This document shows positions 45,600-55,700 of a stretch of DNA of 64,000 nt, piece by piece. The notes beneath the pieces are model-generated. The model was not told the DNA's origin, did no database searches, and saw only the letters and a list, made by a program, of their open reading frames with translations. How positions within the stretch are numbered: the stretch's first letter is position 1; every line of letters begins with the position of its first letter. This stretch comes from Tuwongella immobilis (lineage in GTDB: Bacteria; Planctomycetota; Planctomycetia; Gemmatales; Gemmataceae): assembly GCF_901538355.1 (NCBI RefSeq), contig NZ_LR593887.1, forward strand, positions 434,001 through 498,000, read 5' to 3'. A program made the position numbers and the translations under genes.

Positions 45600-46155
45600 G
45601 TCACGGGCAGATCCCGCCTGTCCATCGAGTTGGCCAGTCCGCGACAGCGACAACCATGCTCATTTCGCCGATTTTTGCGGGAAATTCCGCAGAGATGCCA
45701 TCGCCAGAAATTGCGAAAATTCCGGTGCGACGCTCGGCATTGGGAAGTGACACAGGCCGGGCTGCGGTTCCAATCGGCAATCGCAAGCGCATCTTCCCGG
45801 CGATGGCGGATGGGGTGCCCGACAGACCGCAAATTCGGATTGTGGTGAGAATCGATCGTCCCAAGTCGCCCGGTTGGGACGCAACAATGGGCATGCCCCG
45901 ACGTTCGCCAATCTCCACGAATAAATTGGCACCAAATCGCCCCAATATCTTGACAAGTCGCTCCAATCCCCGGATACTAATGCCAGACGACCGATCCAGG
46001 TGGGCAACGCCGGAAGTCCAACCAGGCAACGACGTTCCGTCTCGAAACGATGTGCTGAATGCTTGTGCGTCTGTTGGATTAGCAGGTTTCCTCCCCCACC
46101 CCTGGGCAAAACCTCCTCCCAACCCCAACCGCCACAACGACTTCGGTCACCCAGA
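45600..46155 (+). other. CRISPR leader region, no gene
   Basis: Between the CobW upstream region and the first CRISPR repeat several frames are open on both strands, but none has a ribosome site or a recognisable domain. One long minus-strand frame (to 46292) is made partly of translated CRISPR repeats. The part near the array contains a candidate promoter (45950-45978) and a polypurine/polypyrimidine stretch at 46085-46130. This side is inferred to be the leader because the opposite end carries the decayed repeat. Confidence 0.5.
45950..45978 (+). promoter_or_regulatory. Candidate promoter for the CRISPR array
   Basis: TTGACA at 45950-45955 (perfect -35) is followed after 17 bases by GATACT at 45973-45978 (4 of 6 to the -10 consensus). 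It would start an RNA near 45985, about 170 bases before the first repeat and in the direction expected from the ATTGAAAC repeat end. Evidence is positional. Confidence 0.33.
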
Positions 46156-47421
46156 GGCGCAGTCCGCACGAGCGATTCGAGCTCATTGAAACGATCGAAG
46201 CCCGGAAACGGTACATCGCGGCCCGCGATGCGATGCTGGCCGCGTGGCGCAGTCCGCACGAGCGATTCGAGCTCATTGAAACTCAACCCCATCCGTCCCG
46301 CGTAGGGTGATGGCGTGCTGGCGCAGTCCGCACGAGCGATTCGAGCTCATTGAAACCTTGAATCTTGAACCATTCGATACCTGATTCATTCGACACGGCG
46401 CAGTCCGCACGAGCGATTAGAGCTCATTGAAACGCGAGGTATGCCAGCCGCTGCTCGCTGGTAAGTTGGGGCGCAGTCCGCACGAGCGATTAGAGCTCAT
46501 TGAAACCGTCGGAGAAAAAACTCTTATTGAACTGCCGAATTCTCTCCGGCGCAGTCCGCACGAGCGATTAGAGCTCATTGAAACGTATCAGCTCTGGATA
46601 CATTTCCTCACCTCATTTGATCGTGGCGCAGTCCGAACGAGCGATTAGAGCTCATTGAAACCCGATAAATTCCTCCCGAGGATCGATGCCGGTTGCGACC
46701 CAGGGCGCAGTCCGAACGAGCGATTCGAGCTCATTGAAACCGTAACAATCCTGGTGGACTAGATAGCTGACATAGACCATGGCGCAGTCCGAACGAGCGA
46801 TTAGAGCTCATTGAAACGTTTTGACATCGTTGGCGTAACCCGCCTTGATGGTGTGGCGCAGTCCGCACGAGCGATTAGAGCTCATTGAAACCAGTCTTGG
46901 TGGACCAAGTAACTGACGTATGTCATCGAGGCGCAGTCCGCACGAGCGATTAGAGCTCATTGAAACGATCTGGACATCGTACCCCGCCCCGAGCGGATCA
47001 CCTGGGGCGCAGTCCGCACGAGCGATTAGAGCTCATTGAAACACGATCAGGAAGTTCTGGTAGAAATTCCATTGGTACGAGTCGTCGGCGCAATCCGCAC
47101 GAGCGATTAGAGCTCATTGAAACGAGAATGCACCGAGATCGTCGTTGCGAATGTCCCGGTAATGGCGCAGTCCGAACGAGCGATTAGAGCTCATTGAAAC
47201 GTGATTTCGATTCCGTTGGCGAACAGCCTTCCTCTAAAAGGGCGCAGTCCGCACGAGCGATTAGAGCTCATTGAAACAGGATGCCCAGCGGCTGCATCAC
47301 ACCGTTACCGTTGACGATGGCGCAGTCCGCACGAGCGATTCGAGCTCATTGAAACCCCCTTACACTCTCACAGCGGGTGTCCGCTACTCCAGGCGCGGTC
47401 CGCACGAGTGATTCGAGTTTC
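46156..47421 (+). CRISPR. CRISPR array, 16 full repeats and one decayed repeat, no adjacent cas genes
   Basis: The 37-base repeats start at 46156, 46246, 46320, 46397, 46470, 46548, 46625, 46704, 46781, 46855, 46930, 47006, 47087, 47164, 47241 and 47319; a decayed copy starts at 47392. Each begins GGCGCAGTCC and ends ATTGAAAC, with an internal GAGC/GCTC stem (positions 15-18 and 26-29). Position 12 (C or A) and position 23 (C or A) vary, and repeat 13 has A at position 7. Spacers are 36-44 bp, except the first at 53 bp. The ending matches the AUUGAAAC-type 5' handle of type III (and some type I) crRNAs and sets transcription to the plus strand, with the decayed repeat at the trailer end. No cas1, cas2, cas6, cas10 or other cas gene is in this window, so processing must depend on genes elsewhere. 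Confidence 0.97.
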
Positions 47422-47454
47422 GACTTCGCGGAAGGTGGGGCGGGGGAGAGCCGC

Positions 47455-47811
47455 GTGAGCAAGAAAAAGGCGTTGCGGGCGGCGTTTCGAGAGGCGGTTT
47501 TTTCGCGGGCGAAGCATCGCTGTGAGTGCTGCGGCGTTGCGGGATTCGATCGGCAGGCGGGAAGTGGGAATGGCGTGCCACTCGATGCCCATCATATCGA
47601 AGATCGACACACCTTTGCCCATGGCGGCTATGTTCTGGAAAATGGCATCGCGGTCTGCGATGACTGCCATCTCAAGGCCGAGGCGTATCACATGAATCGC
47701 GAGCCGGAGCCGGGATTCTGGCCGCATGAATTGTATGCCAAAATTGGCTCATCCCATGCCGATGCACTCGCGGCGGATGCCGAACATGCAGAACGCCCCA
47801 GCACGAATTGA
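47455..47811 (+). CDS. Small HNH endonuclease-like protein next to the CRISPR trailer
   Basis: A 118-residue protein with a zinc-supported HNH motif: CECCG (first Cys pair), LDAHHIEDRH (His-His core), NGIAVCDDCH (Asn and second Cys pair). The N-terminus is basic (KKKALRAAFREAVFSRAKHR), and the C-terminal 40 residues look disordered. GTG at 47455 is chosen because GGGGGAGAG lies just upstream; the frame further left runs into the decayed CRISPR repeat. Only 34 bases separate that repeat from the start, so the gene may be read through from the array. It could be a restriction-type nuclease, a homing-type remnant or a defence effector; undecided. Confidence 0.8.
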   Translation: MSKKKALRAAFREAVFSRAKHRCECCGVAGFDRQAGSGNGVPLDAHHIEDRHTFAHGGYVLENGIAVCDDCHLKAEAYHMNREPEPGFWPHELYAKIGSSHADALAADAEHAERPSTN

Positions 47812-51254: not shown

Positions 51255-54200
51255 ATGATGCTCCCCCTGATTCGCCGTCTGTGGGCCGGTAAACTGCGCA
51301 CACAATCCCCTCAACCCCGCAAATCCCCATTCCTTTCGACGGAACGATTGGAAGACCGTGTGACCCCTTCATTCGGTCTGTCGGGCCTGTTGTCGCCGAC
51401 TGCGGCAGGAAGCATCCCCATCGCACAGGTGGGAGCTGGCGCACGATTGGCCAGTGTGGACACCGCGCAATCGGAATTGCTCAACGGGTTGATTCAAAGT
51501 CTGACCGGCGGCGGTTCGGTCAGTTTGACTGCGGTGGATTATCAAGGGCTGAGCAACGCCGATTTGAATTTGAATGCGATTCTCACCAGTTTGCAGACGC
51601 AACTCAGTTTGGCGAATCCGCAACAAGCACTGAATGCCAATGTCACGATCCCGCAGTTGCTCACCGCCGCCGCCTCGGCTGCCAATGCGGATGGCAACAC
51701 GGCGGTTGCGACGATTTTCAACAATCTGGGAACGCAAATTGGGGCACTCGCAGGCACCATTCGGCTGGGCGATTTGTTTGATATTTCGCTGCCCAACGGC
51801 AATCTGGCGCAAGCTCAACTGAACGCGCTGGATTTGTTGACCGGCGGCGTGCAGTTGTTCAACTTCCAGAACGTGTTGACCACCACCTCGCCGATTTCGA
51901 TTCCGGGGGTGGATCTCGGTATCGCCTCGATTGCTAGCTTGCAACTGCGAGCGCAAGTCGTTGAACCGCCAGTATTTGTGATCGGCGGCGCCGGCAGCCA
52001 GTTCAACACCGCCGCCATTCGCATTGCCACCGATGTCGATTTGGTCGATGTCGATTTGGATATTTCGGATATCGTCGATGATATTTTGGGCCTGCCGTTG
52101 GTGGGGGCATTGGCGAATGTGACGGCGGAAGCCTCCATTGCCGAGTTGAGCATCTACACCGAAGTGGCTGCGGGTTCGGGAACCATTCAATCGATCAACG
52201 CGCTGACCAACGCGATTACGCTCTCGTCGACTCCGTCCATCGCCAATGTGTATCTCGGTCAAATCGCGGATAGTGTCTTCTTCAATCGCAATTCGGTGAT
52301 TAACCCCGCCACCGATGTCACGCCTGGCGTCGTTGGGTCGGTGCAGTTGGGGATCGTCGCATTGGGCATCCCGCTGCTGGATCTTACGGCGGTCGATTTG
52401 AACTTGCGATCCACTGCGTTGGGGTCGCCGGCCTCCCCGATTGTCACCAATTACACGCCGCCGTATCCGGACTTCGACACCGTTTCCGCCGGTGGGGCGG
52501 GGGTGGCCAATCTCGTCTCCACGCTGGTCAGCAATCTCGAATTGTCTGCGAACATTCTTGGTCTGCCGGTCGTGGGCGGCTTGAATACGCTGCTCAATAC
52601 GCTGCTCAACAACACCGTCAACGACACCATCGTGCAAGGCGTGCTGACACCCGTGTTGACGGGGGTGGTCGATCCGCTGCTCGATTCGCTTGGTATCGGC
52701 ATCGGCGAGATGGATTTGGCCGTTCTCGGGGTCGATTCACCGGATGTGCCGACGGCGGTGAACGACTCGCTGCTGACGCTGCAAAATCGGCCCGTGAGTG
52801 CCGCGATTCTCAACAACGATCTGAATCCCAACGGGTTGGCGATTACCGTGCAGATTGTCGGCAATCCGGCCAGCGGCGTCGTGATTCTCAACGCCGATAA
52901 CACGGTCACCTACACGCCCAACGCGGGATTCCTGGGCACGGATTCGTTCTCGTATCAAATCACCGATTCGTTCGGTCGCGTTTCCAATACCGGCAACGTG
53001 GCGGTTTTCGTGGGAACGGCCACGGCCAACAACCAAGCGCCGAACATCAACCCCGACACGGCTACGGTGGCGACCAACGGCACGGTCAATATCGCTGTGC
53101 TGGCCAATGACACCGATCCCAACGGCGATCCGATTTCGATCATTGGCGCGAGCAAGGCCGCCAATGGGACGGTGGTGGTCAACGCGAATGGGACCATCAC
53201 CTACACGCCGAATGCCGGATTCACGGGCATCGATCAATTCAGCTACGGTGCCGGCGATGGCAAAGGCGGCGTCGGCAGCGCGATGGTGACGGTAACGGTC
53301 GGTACCACGGGTGGAAATACCGGGCCGAACATCAACCCCGACACGGCCAACGGCACCCAAGGCGATGCGTTGGTCGTCTCCGTTTTGGCCAACGACACCA
53401 CGCCCACCGGAAAAGCCCTCACCGTCATCGGCGTCAGCCAACCAGCAAACGGCAAGGCGGTCATCAATGGCGATGGCACGGTGACCTACACGCCGAATGC
53501 GTCGTTCTTCGGCCAAGATCGCTTCACCTATACCGCCGCCGATGTCAACGGCTTGTTCGGCGGAGCGACGGTCACCATCACCGTGGCCCGCGACAACGTC
53601 AATCCGGTCATCAACCCCGACACGGCCAACGCCCTGAACACCGGCAATGTTGTGGTGCCCGTGTTGGCCAACGATACTGACGGCGACGGCGATCCGCTCA
53701 CCATCAGCGGCATCACGCAGCCGGCCAATGGGAAGGCGGTCATCAACGCCAATGGCACGGTGACCTACACGCCGAATGCCGGATTCGTCGGCGATGATAG
53801 CTTCACCTACACCGCCGTGGATGGTTTCGGCGGCAGTGGCTCCGCGTCGGTGACGATTACCGTTAGCAACCCGAATTCCTCGCCGACGGTGAATCCGGAC
53901 ACGGCGGATGTCACCAACAATACCTCGGTGACGATTCCGGTGCTGGATAACGATACCGATGGTGATGGCGATCCGCTGACGGTGAGCAACGTCACGCAGC
54001 CGGTCAACGGCACGGTCACCATCAATCCCGATGGCACGATTACCTATACGCCGAACGCCGGATTCGTGGGCGATGATAGCTTCACCTACACGGCCAGCGA
54101 CGGTCGCGGTGGAAGTGGTTCCGCGACGGTGAATGTCAGCGTGGCTCGGGCGAATGTCGCTCCGGTTGTGCGCAATGACACTGCCAATACGCTCATCAAT

Positions 54201-55700
54201 CGCCTGGTGACGGTCCCCGTGTTGGCCAACGACACCGATGGCGATGGCGATTCGCTGACGATCACCAACGTCAGCCAGCCGCGAAATGGGACCGTGGTGC
54301 TCAATGCCAACGGCACCATCACCTACACGCCTCGCACGGGATTCACTGGCACGGATAGCTTTACCTACACGGCCAGCGATGGATTCGGCGGCAGTGGCTC
54401 CGCGACGGTGGCGGTCACGGTCGGCATGGGCGGCGGACAGTCCGGCGGTGGCGACGGTGGCAATCGCTCGCCGATGGCGTTCGGCGATTCCGCGTTCACC
54501 GAAATCGGACAACCCACCACCGTCAACGTCCTGGCCAACGATGTCGATCCGGATGGCGATCCGTTGAGCGTCGCTTCGGTCACGCAACCGGCTGAGGGCA
54601 GCGTGGTCATCAATCCCGATGGCACGGTCACCTTCACGCCGAATGCCGGATTCCAAGGCACGGTTGTGTTCCAATACACCGTGACGGATGGCCGTGGCGG
54701 ATCGTCGGGCAATATCGTGCAAGTGGTGGTCGGTCGGGCTCCGGGCGATGGCCCGCCGGTGATTCCGGAACTGCGGCAATATGTCGTGGGTGCCGATACC
54801 GGTGGTGGCCCGCGTGTCACGGTGTACAACCCGGACGGCTCCACGAAGTTCAACTTCTTCGCCTATGATCCCAATGGCCGCTTCGGCGTCAGCGTGGCGA
54901 TGGGTGATATTGACGGCGACGGGGTGTCCGACATTCTCACCTCGCCGGGCTTCGGTGGTGGGCCGCACATTCGCGTGCTGAGCGGCAAAGATCTCACACC
55001 GATTGTCGATTTCTTCGCATTCAATCCGGAATTCCGCGGCGGCGTCTCGATCTCGACCGGCGACCTCAACGGCGACGGTCGCAACGATATCGTCGTGGCG
55101 GCGGGACCGGGGGGCGGGCCGCATGTCCGTGTGATCGATGGCACGAAGATCAATCTGCTCGATGCGGGCGGGGTGATTACCGAAGCGGCGCTGATGGCCA
55201 ATTTCTTTGCCTTCGACAGCACCTTCGGCGGTGGCGTCTCGGTGGCGGTCACCGATTTGGATCTCAACGGCGTGGGCGAATTGATCACCGGCTCGGGCCC
55301 CGGCGGTCCGCCGCTGGTGCGCGTCTGGGATGTGCCGACCATGACGTTGACCCGCGAATTCTTCGCCTTCGACCCCTCCTTCTCGCAAGGGGTGAACGTC
55401 GGCGGTCGGGGCCAATTCATCGTGGTCGCGGCTGGTCGGGGTGGAATTCCCCGCGTGCAGGTGTTCAAGGGCGTGCAACAGGAATTGATCTCGGACTTCT
55501 TGGCGTATGAGCCGACCTTCACCGGCGGTGCTCGCGTCAACTTTGCCGAGACGGTGGATGCCTCGAATCCGCTGTTCCTCATCGGGGCGGGGGTTGGTGG
55601 TGGGCCGCGGATTCGTGTGCTGCGACCGACCGGCGAAACGGTTCTGCCCGATTACTTTGCCTTCGAGCCGTCCTTCCGCGGCGGTGTCTATGTGAACTGA
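51255..55700 (+). CDS. Giant LEDR surface protein with seven cadherin-like units and FG-GAP-like domain
   Basis: A 1481-residue protein. The N-terminus has ERLEDRVTPSFG (about 31-42), the planctomycete LEDR motif. Residues about 45-490 are a Leu/Asn/Val-rich beta domain. Seven cadherin-like Big_9-type units follow (about 496-1165), each with VLANDTDGDGDPL and TYTPNAGFVGDDSFTYTA cores; four consecutive unit starts are exactly 279 bases apart. The C-terminal ~310 residues have FG-GAP-like repeats (DIDGDGVSDI, DLNGDGRNDI, DLDLNGVGELI) that should bind calcium. It is most likely a calcium-stabilised adhesin or S-layer-like matrix protein. The 1005-codon antisense frame is a composition artefact. 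Confidence 0.9.
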   Translation: MMLPLIRRLWAGKLRTQSPQPRKSPFLSTERLEDRVTPSFGLSGLLSPTAAGSIPIAQVGAGARLASVDTAQSELLNGLIQSLTGGGSVSLTAVDYQGLSNADLNLNAILTSLQTQLSLANPQQALNANVTIPQLLTAAASAANADGNTAVATIFNNLGTQIGALAGTIRLGDLFDISLPNGNLAQAQLNALDLLTGGVQLFNFQNVLTTTSPISIPGVDLGIASIASLQLRAQVVEPPVFVIGGAGSQFNTAAIRIATDVDLVDVDLDISDIVDDILGLPLVGALANVTAEASIAELSIYTEVAAGSGTIQSINALTNAITLSSTPSIANVYLGQIADSVFFNRNSVINPATDVTPGVVGSVQLGIVALGIPLLDLTAVDLNLRSTALGSPASPIVTNYTPPYPDFDTVSAGGAGVANLVSTLVSNLELSANILGLPVVGGLNTLLNTLLNNTVNDTIVQGVLTPVLTGVVDPLLDSLGIGIGEMDLAVLGVDSPDVPTAVNDSLLTLQNRPVSAAILNNDLNPNGLAITVQIVGNPASGVVILNADNTVTYTPNAGFLGTDSFSYQITDSFGRVSNTGNVAVFVGTATANNQAPNINPDTATVATNGTVNIAVLANDTDPNGDPISIIGASKAANGTVVVNANGTITYTPNAGFTGIDQFSYGAGDGKGGVGSAMVTVTVGTTGGNTGPNINPDTANGTQGDALVVSVLANDTTPTGKALTVIGVSQPANGKAVINGDGTVTYTPNASFFGQDRFTYTAADVNGLFGGATVTITVARDNVNPVINPDTANALNTGNVVVPVLANDTDGDGDPLTISGITQPANGKAVINANGTVTYTPNAGFVGDDSFTYTAVDGFGGSGSASVTITVSNPNSSPTVNPDTADVTNNTSVTIPVLDNDTDGDGDPLTVSNVTQPVNGTVTINPDGTITYTPNAGFVGDDSFTYTASDGRGGSGSATVNVSVARANVAPVVRNDTANTLINRLVTVPVLANDTDGDGDSLTITNVSQPRNGTVVLNANGTITYTPRTGFTGTDSFTYTASDGFGGSGSATVAVTVGMGGGQSGGGDGGNRSPMAFGDSAFTEIGQPTTVNVLANDVDPDGDPLSVASVTQPAEGSVVINPDGTVTFTPNAGFQGTVVFQYTVTDGRGGSSGNIVQVVVGRAPGDGPPVIPELRQYVVGADTGGGPRVTVYNPDGSTKFNFFAYDPNGRFGVSVAMGDIDGDGVSDILTSPGFGGGPHIRVLSGKDLTPIVDFFAFNPEFRGGVSISTGDLNGDGRNDIVVAAGPGGGPHVRVIDGTKINLLDAGGVITEAALMANFFAFDSTFGGGVSVAVTDLDLNGVGELITGSGPGGPPLVRVWDVPTMTLTREFFAFDPSFSQGVNVGGRGQFIVVAAGRGGIPRVQVFKGVQQELISDFLAYEPTFTGGARVNFAETVDASNPLFLIGAGVGGGPRIRVLRPTGETVLPDYFAFEPSFRGGVYVN
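52745..54752 (+). repeat. Seven tandem cadherin-like coding repeats
   Basis: Unit starts are near 52745, then 53040, 53325, 53604, 53883, 54162 and 54471. Spacings of 285, 279, 279, 279 and 309 bases show three exactly equal periods. Units 4 and 5 are the most alike, which indicates recent amplification by unequal exchange, while the outer units have diverged. Confidence 0.85.

What the first reader, a model, noticed from the sequence alone, without database searches (positions are those of the whole stretch)
46741..46929. Spacers 8 and 10 encode the same peptide with different codons
The reverse complement of spacer 8 (46741-46780) reads MVYVSYLVHQDCY, and that of spacer 10 (46892-46929) reads SMTYVSYLVHQD. 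The DNA differs mainly at synonymous positions. The array therefore took up the same window of one protein-coding gene from two diverged invaders. With plus-strand transcription, both crRNAs are antisense to the mRNA, as type III RNA targeting requires.
Basis: partly seen in the sequence, partly recalled or inferred. Interest (0 to 1): 0.68.

Follow-up and report, generated by a model that had tools for sequence, protein, structure and literature searches.

The report
Two CRISPR spacers, one encoded peptide
A bacterial immune memory array holds two separately stored fragments that spell the same piece of protein with different codons, most likely because the cell met two related but diverged invaders and kept nearly the same spot of the same gene each time; this is real but of a known kind, and the gene itself was not found in the collections searched.

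Summary
Spacers 8 and 10, reverse complemented, read M[V/T]YVSYLVHQD in one frame. Their peptide score is 54; the best pair in 150 shuffled arrays averaged 28 (maximum 36). They overlap by 35 nt with 10 differences; all 7 inside YVSYLVHQD are silent (2 of 300,000 random trials). No other pair in this array stands out; 9/11 fails.

The array has no cas1 nearby and no cas gene among the ORFs scanned. A sister array with homologous leader sits beside a stand-alone Cas6. The genome also holds III-B cmr genes, a I-G operon and Cas6-RT-Cas1 with its own array. Leader and promoter-like site imply + transcription, so both crRNAs are antisense to the inferred mRNA.

Best reading: two acquisitions at nearly the same site of one conserved gene in two diverged invaders. 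The gene stays unidentified: no search returned a convincing homologue. Antisense orientation is not general here (10 of 16 spacers, p = 0.45). Overlapping spacer pairs are already described (PMC5071653, passages). Interest is modest.

The parts
45950..45978 (+). promoter-like site TTGACA-17-GATACT in the leader; the sister array's leader shows the same hexamers and spacing by eye
   Evidence: 1 site found on this stretch; shuffles mean 0.7, s.d. 0.8; leader sequences
45999..46155 (+). leader; 45999-46144 aligns with the leader of the sister array at C1:839447
   Evidence: local alignment score 32.5, against 12.0 and 10.5 for the two pairs that involve the RT-array leader
46156..47428 (+). CRISPR array: 16 intact 37-nt repeats (0-2 differences from GGCGCAGTCCGCACGAGCGATTAGAGCTCATTGAAAC), a decayed 17th, 16 spacers of 36-44 nt (spacer 1: 53 nt)
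46741..46780 (-). spacer 8; minus strand encodes MVYVSYLVHQDCY
46892..46929 (-). spacer 10; minus strand encodes SMTYVSYLVHQD
46585..46624 (+). spacer 6; no open frame on the minus strand, so a counter-example to 'all crRNAs antisense' (or from non-coding DNA)
47392..47428 (+). decayed terminal repeat (13 differences) marking the trailer end

Best explanation
Spacers 8 and 10 are two separate acquisitions from homologous copies of one strongly conserved protein-coding gene carried by two diverged mobile elements, probably phages. The older one (10, leader-distal) would mismatch the later invader at 10 of 35 positions, so a second spacer (8) was taken from nearly the same place. Transcription from the leader gives crRNAs antisense to the gene's mRNA, usable by the III-B Cmr complex encoded elsewhere in the genome. 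Shown: array, leader, codon-phased homology, orientation, presence of III-B genes. Inferred: two invaders, their being phages, acquisition in trans by a distant Cas1, Cmr as the user, and acquisition or retention biased to this spot.
For: Peptide score 54 against shuffled best-pair 28.0, s.d. 2.5, maximum 36; 7 of 7 differences silent in the nine-residue core. Repeats across the array differ by 0-2 bases from the consensus while the two spacers differ at 10 of 35 positions. The only places in the host genome within 3 mismatches of the peptide pattern are the two spacers, so the source is foreign or lost. Leader homology plus shared promoter-like hexamers and the decayed last repeat give + transcription and put spacer 8 on the younger side. 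III-B genes Cas10, Cmr1, Cmr3, Cmr4, Cmr6 and Csx1; stand-alone Cas6 beside the sister array.
Against: No convincing homologue of the peptide was found: IMG/VR (and concatenated), species genomes, 392 Planctomycetota, 95 same-family genomes, phages and plasmids. Source, gene and number of invaders are therefore inferred. The array as a whole shows no significant antisense bias (10 of 16, p = 0.45; 8 of 12 among the clearer cases, p = 0.39).
Confidence: 0.8

Rival explanations
1. Both spacers come from two paralogous or repeated copies of the gene inside a single invader (or a multi-copy mobile element), so only one kind of invader was met.
For: Spacer sequence alone cannot separate paralogues from orthologues.
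Against: Ten of the eleven residues from the shared Met to Asp are identical despite many silent changes, as expected of an orthologue under strong constraint; paralogues in one genome are often less constrained (general knowledge). Not tested directly.
Confidence: 0.12
2. Spacer 10 was duplicated within the array and the copy mutated.
For: The two spacers lie two units apart. A near-identical spacer pair (R7/R21, differing in the last base only) exists in the RT array of this genome.
Against: The repeats stayed nearly identical while the spacers differ at 10 of 35 overlapping positions. All 7 core changes are silent in one frame, which a non-coding array copy would not select for. The ends are shifted by 3 and 5 nt.
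Confidence: 0.02
3. Primed adaptation (a sub-reading of the best explanation): the older mismatched spacer recruited the I-G machinery (Cas3, Cas4-Cas1) to re-sample the same locus in the later invader.
For: I-G Cas3, Cas8, Cas7, Cas5-6 and Cas4-Cas1 are in the genome. In Legionella I-C, older imperfect and newer perfect spacers on overlapping sites were read this way (PMC5071653, passages). Type III repeat clusters without their own cas1-cas2 usually carry PAMs, attributed to type I modules in trans (PMC8482600, passages).
Against: The two ends on the crRNA 5' side differ by 5 nt, so not one fixed PAM position. No CRISPR-like repeat was seen in C1:1422000-1452000 around the I-G operon, and the array repeat is not tied here to I-G. 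No PAM can be read without a source sequence.
Confidence: 0.15
4. RNA-derived (another sub-reading): the spacers were copied from RNA by the Cas6-RT-Cas1 protein, perhaps from RNA phages with small genomes, which would explain both the repeated hit on one spot and the absence from DNA collections.
For: Cas6-RT-Cas1 with Cas2 in the genome. If all 16 spacers came evenly from relatives of one genome, the expected number of such coincidences is 0.165 for 4 kb against 0.017 for 40 kb. No DNA homologue found.
Against: The RT array's spacers are shorter (mean 34.4 against 39.4 nt with spacer 1 left out, p = 8e-6) and its leader does not align well with this one, so RT-Cas1 probably does not feed this array. 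Most spacers have no known source anyway (general knowledge). No RNA-virus sequence was compared beyond what the phage collection may hold.
Confidence: 0.06
5. Chance similarity of two unrelated spacers.
For: On DNA alone 1 of 200 shuffled sets reached the same best-pair score.
Against: Peptide score 54 against maximum 36 in 150 shuffled arrays, and 7 of 7 silent changes.
Confidence: 0.005

Closest known systems
Legionella pneumophila I-C spacer pairs on overlapping regions of LME-1 (PMC5071653, passages read)
   Same: Two spacers of one array cover overlapping sites of one kind of mobile element; the older one mismatches the current element.
   Different: There the element is known and the older spacer has mismatches in PAM or seed; here the source is unknown, 10 of 35 positions differ, 7 of them silently inside the nine-residue core, and the array has no cas1 nearby.
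Type III arrays served in trans by other adaptation modules, with coding-strand bias (PMC8482600, passages read)
   Same: Array without cas1 beside it, in a genome with both type I and III-B genes; this pair is antisense to the inferred mRNA.
   Different: No PAM could be read, and the array as a whole shows no significant strand bias.
Marinomonas mediterranea III-B with RT-Cas1 (PMC5576922, passages read)
   Same: A genome with type I, type III-B and RT-Cas1 together; crRNA sharing is conceivable.
   Different: Here RT-Cas1 (fused to Cas6) sits with its own array 2.3 Mb from the cmr genes and 3.9 Mb from this array along the contig.

Membership tests
CRISPR array | near-identical direct repeats separated by unique spacers of regular length | tested here: met
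   16 intact 37-nt repeats, 16 spacers, 15 of them 36-44 nt
CRISPR array | leader with promoter on one side, decayed repeat on the other | tested here: met
   the promoter is a consensus match only
Type III-B array | cas10/cmr genes linked to the array | tested here: not met
   no cas gene among the 10 ORFs scanned with PADLOC and the 10 with Pfam between 33683 and 49457; the cmr genes lie at C1:2051090-2059759
Type III-B array | a III-B effector and a Cas6 present in the same genome | tested here: met
   Cas10, Cmr1, Cmr3, Cmr4, Cmr6 and Csx1 (Cmr5 not looked for); stand-alone Cas6 beside the sister array
Type III-B array | spacers predominantly antisense to transcripts | tested here: inconclusive
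   spacers 8 and 10 yes; array 10 of 16, p = 0.45
RNA-derived spacers (RT-Cas1) | array linked to RT-Cas1 by leader, repeat and spacer length | tested here: not met
   leader alignment weak (10.5), repeats differ, spacer lengths differ p = 8e-6
Type I-G array | PAM at protospacers and linkage to I-G cas genes | not testable with these tools
   no protospacer found, so no PAM; the I-G operon is about 0.95 Mb away

The most novel reading that the evidence does not exclude
The invader family is one with a very small genome not represented in DNA collections, possibly an RNA phage, so that the same 40-nt stretch was hit twice, and the array records constraint on a viral protein that nobody has sequenced: spacer pairs that differ only silently would then be a database-free way to read conserved protein segments of unknown viruses.
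Probability: 0.06. Interest if true: 0.6.

Novelty: new member of a known kind. Interest (0 to 1): 0.3.

Why it matters
Codon-phased similarity between two spacers of one array gives coding origin, reading frame, strand and amino-acid constraint of an invader gene without any source sequence. Applied to whole spacer collections, this pairwise test could give frame and orientation for spacers whose origin is unknown, and locate spots that hosts target repeatedly in diverged phages. For this genome alone it is one clear example and no more.

Tried and rejected
Peptide searches for the source gene: exact YVSYLVHQD back-translation in IMG/VR and in the species genomes collection; relaxed versions in IMG/VR (2 stretches; 3; 1; 2; 13). 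All 21 stretches were read: the first 8 lie in frames of 11-57 aa; of the 13, 11 lie in frames of 21-104 aa and two in frames of 253 and 238 aa, none with YVSY before the match. With 2 mismatches: 392 Planctomycetota genomes gave 7 places in 6 other genomes against 4 in the reversed control (one in a 611-aa frame reading HECYLVHQD, six in frames of 10-96 aa); 95 same-family genomes, the own one included, gave 1 place in another genome, in a 73-aa frame, against 1 in the control. tblastn of the spacer-8 unit in phages and plasmids: none at E up to 10, but so short a query is near the detection limit. PDB: none for the spacer-8 unit. PHROGs: none for both units. Pfam gave PHD_2 (E 0.0016) and DUF1820 (E 0.17) for spacer 8 only, both below their cut-offs; PHD_2 partly covers repeat-derived residues and the spacer lacks the first PHD cysteines (their position is recalled); rejected.

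Other spacers: array against phages (3 records) and plasmids (13 records), only matches at E 0.4 or weaker; concatenated peptides of eight spacers in IMG/VR (2 stretches matched a pattern, none confirmed, none shown); QWNFYQN of spacer 12.

Spacer pair 9/11 (AGY-DV) looked similar by eye: p = 0.2, rejected. Repeat relatives: only the own genome among 95 family genomes; 23 stretches with one match each in species genomes, taken as chance and not read further.

Strand test: (a first training set) gave 10 of 16, 3 of 8 and 17 of 22 minus; (other training set, calibrated) gave 10 of 16, 3 of 8 and 18 of 22.

Papers: PMC8482600, PMC5513706, PMC5576922 and PMC5071653 read as passages, PMC6401485 as outline with abstract. 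Searches listed no title or abstract on this array or on a silent-difference spacer pair; they are narrow, only listings were read, and they do not show absence from print. Searches looked for RNA-phage spacers and type III priming.

Full report
What is there. The window (C1:434001-498000 of a single-contig 6,690,754-base genome) holds a CRISPR array at 46156-47428: 16 intact 37-nt repeats, one decayed terminal repeat and 16 spacers, 15 of 36-44 nt and the first of 53 nt. The genome's size and its place as the only member of its genus among 95 family genomes suggest a Gemmataceae-type planctomycete such as Tuwongella; that name is recalled and comes from no call. No cas gene was recognised among the 10 ORFs scanned with PADLOC and the 10 scanned with Pfam between 33683 and 49457, and the two cas1 genes of the genome are far away.

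The observation. Spacer 8 (46741-46780) and spacer 10 (46892-46929) read MVYVSYLVHQDCY and SMTYVSYLVHQD on the minus strand. Aligned on the shared ATG they overlap by 35 nt with 10 differences. Three of these fall in one V/T codon. The other seven all lie in the nine codons YVSYLVHQD and all are silent: six third-position changes and a first-position change in a Leu codon. Random placement of 7 substitutions kept the nine residues in 2 of 300,000 trials; 10 random changes in 35 nt gave 10 identical residues in any frame in 5 of 40,000. Across all 120 spacer pairs and frames the pair scores 54; the best pair of 150 shuffled arrays averaged 28.0, s.d. 2.5, maximum 36. On DNA alone it is still the best pair of this array, but 1 of 200 shuffled sets did as well. 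The second resemblance I noticed by eye, spacers 9 and 11, fails (p = 0.2).

Orientation and age. A pattern search of the whole genome for pairs of TTGAAA, which would miss arrays with other repeat ends, revealed a sister array at C1:839447-840100 with repeat GTCACAGACCTAACGAGCGCACAGAGCTCATTGAAAC, 8 spacers, beside a stand-alone Cas6. Its leader aligns with that of the window array, and both carry TTGACA-17-GATACT (scanned for the window only). With the decayed repeat at the far end, this sets transcription on the + strand and makes spacer 8 the younger of the two, if acquisition was at the leader end as usual (general knowledge). Both crRNAs are therefore antisense to the inferred mRNA.

Machinery in the genome. 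III-B: Cmr1, Cas10, Cmr3, Cmr4, Cmr6 and Csx1 at C1:2051090-2059759. I-G: Cas3, Cas8, Cas7, Cas5-6 and Cas4-Cas1 at C1:1428131-1435946. A 1017-aa Cas6-RT-Cas1 with Cas2 and a 22-spacer array at C1:4366429-4371665. The window and sister arrays share spacer length (39.4, spacer 1 left out, and 40.1 nt, p = 0.53), whereas the RT array has shorter spacers (34.4 nt, p = 8e-6), a different repeat and a leader that aligns only weakly. So RT-Cas1 is not the obvious feeder of the window array, and which Cas1 filled it remains open. PMC8482600 (passages) reports that 95% of type III repeat clusters lacking their own acquisition genes carry PAMs, attributed to type I modules acting in trans. That is a plausible model here but untested, because no protospacer is known.

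Strand test. Using host codon usage, calibrated on cas genes of this genome (74-77% of 34-40-nt fragments assigned to the right strand), 10 of 16 window spacers, 3 of 8 sister-array spacers and 18 of 22 RT-array spacers look minus-coding, that is, antisense crRNA (p = 0.45, 0.73 and 0.004). Restricted to clear cases the counts are 8 of 12, 1 of 4 and 5 of 6 (p = 0.39, 0.63 and 0.22), so even the RT-array bias rests on weak single calls, and two of its spacers are near-copies of each other. Stop codons alone exclude minus-strand coding for spacer 6 and plus-strand coding for spacers 3 and 8.

Search for the source. The peptide pattern occurs in the own genome only in the two spacers, allowing 3 mismatches. 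It has no exact match in IMG/VR or in the species genomes collection. Relaxed patterns in IMG/VR and mismatched searches of 392 Planctomycetota and 95 same-family genomes returned matches that do not sit in a shared gene. tblastn against 50,697 phage and 72,556 plasmid records found nothing, with a query near the detection limit.

Mechanism. Two acquisitions from orthologous genes of two diverged invaders explain the data best. The ends are shifted by 3 and 5 nt, so the same place but not the same base was chosen, which argues against one fixed motif. If all 16 spacers came evenly from relatives of one genome, so close a coincidence is expected 0.017 times for a 40-kb genome and 0.165 times for 4 kb. 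So either the spot is favoured (by acquisition, priming or survival of spacers on conserved sequence) or the invader is small. Spacers on overlapping sites of one element, the older one imperfect, were described in Legionella I-C arrays (PMC5071653, passages), so the kind of event is known; here the divergence is larger and mostly silent. Confidences of the priming and RNA readings are those of sub-readings and are not exclusive of the best explanation.

Verdict. A real and clean example of a known kind, with an unidentified source. The wider use would be the pairwise silent-difference test as a database-free reader of frame and constraint in spacers of unknown origin.

Noticed in passing
L016 14430-19666 (C1:4366429-4371665): Cas6-RT-Cas1 fusion (1017 aa) with Cas2 and a 22-spacer array; 18 of 22 spacers look antisense by host codon usage (p = 0.004; 5 of 6 clear cases, p = 0.22), a hint of strand-selective acquisition or retention in the RT array.
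   Followed up: partly
L016 18561-18593 and 19527-19559: Spacers R7 and R21 of the RT array are identical except for the last base (A/G), 14 units apart: re-acquisition or a copied spacer.
   Followed up: no
L041 13448-14101 (C1:839447-840100): Sister array of the window array with a related 37-nt repeat and homologous leader, beside a stand-alone Cas6 on the minus strand (L041 11658-13193); neither cas1 of the genome is near it.
   Followed up: yes
L014 6132-13947 (C1:1428131-1435946): Type I-G operon with Cas4-Cas1 but no array-like repeat found within C1:1422000-1452000.
   Followed up: partly
window 46193-46245: The first (leader-end) spacer is 53 nt long and 68% G+C, well outside the 36-44 nt range of the rest; possibly an irregular or host-derived insertion.
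   Followed up: no
window 46818-46854 and 46967-47005: Spacers 9 and 11 share AGY..DV on the minus strand with a two-codon gap; not significant (p = 0.2).
   Followed up: yes
window 47377-47811: Small HNH endonuclease ORF (Pfam HNH, E 1.7e-5) that begins at the trailer end of the array.
   Followed up: no
window 52858-54700: Family of direct repeats with a period of about 280-310 nt (60-80% alike) in a region with long ORFs on both strands.
   Followed up: no
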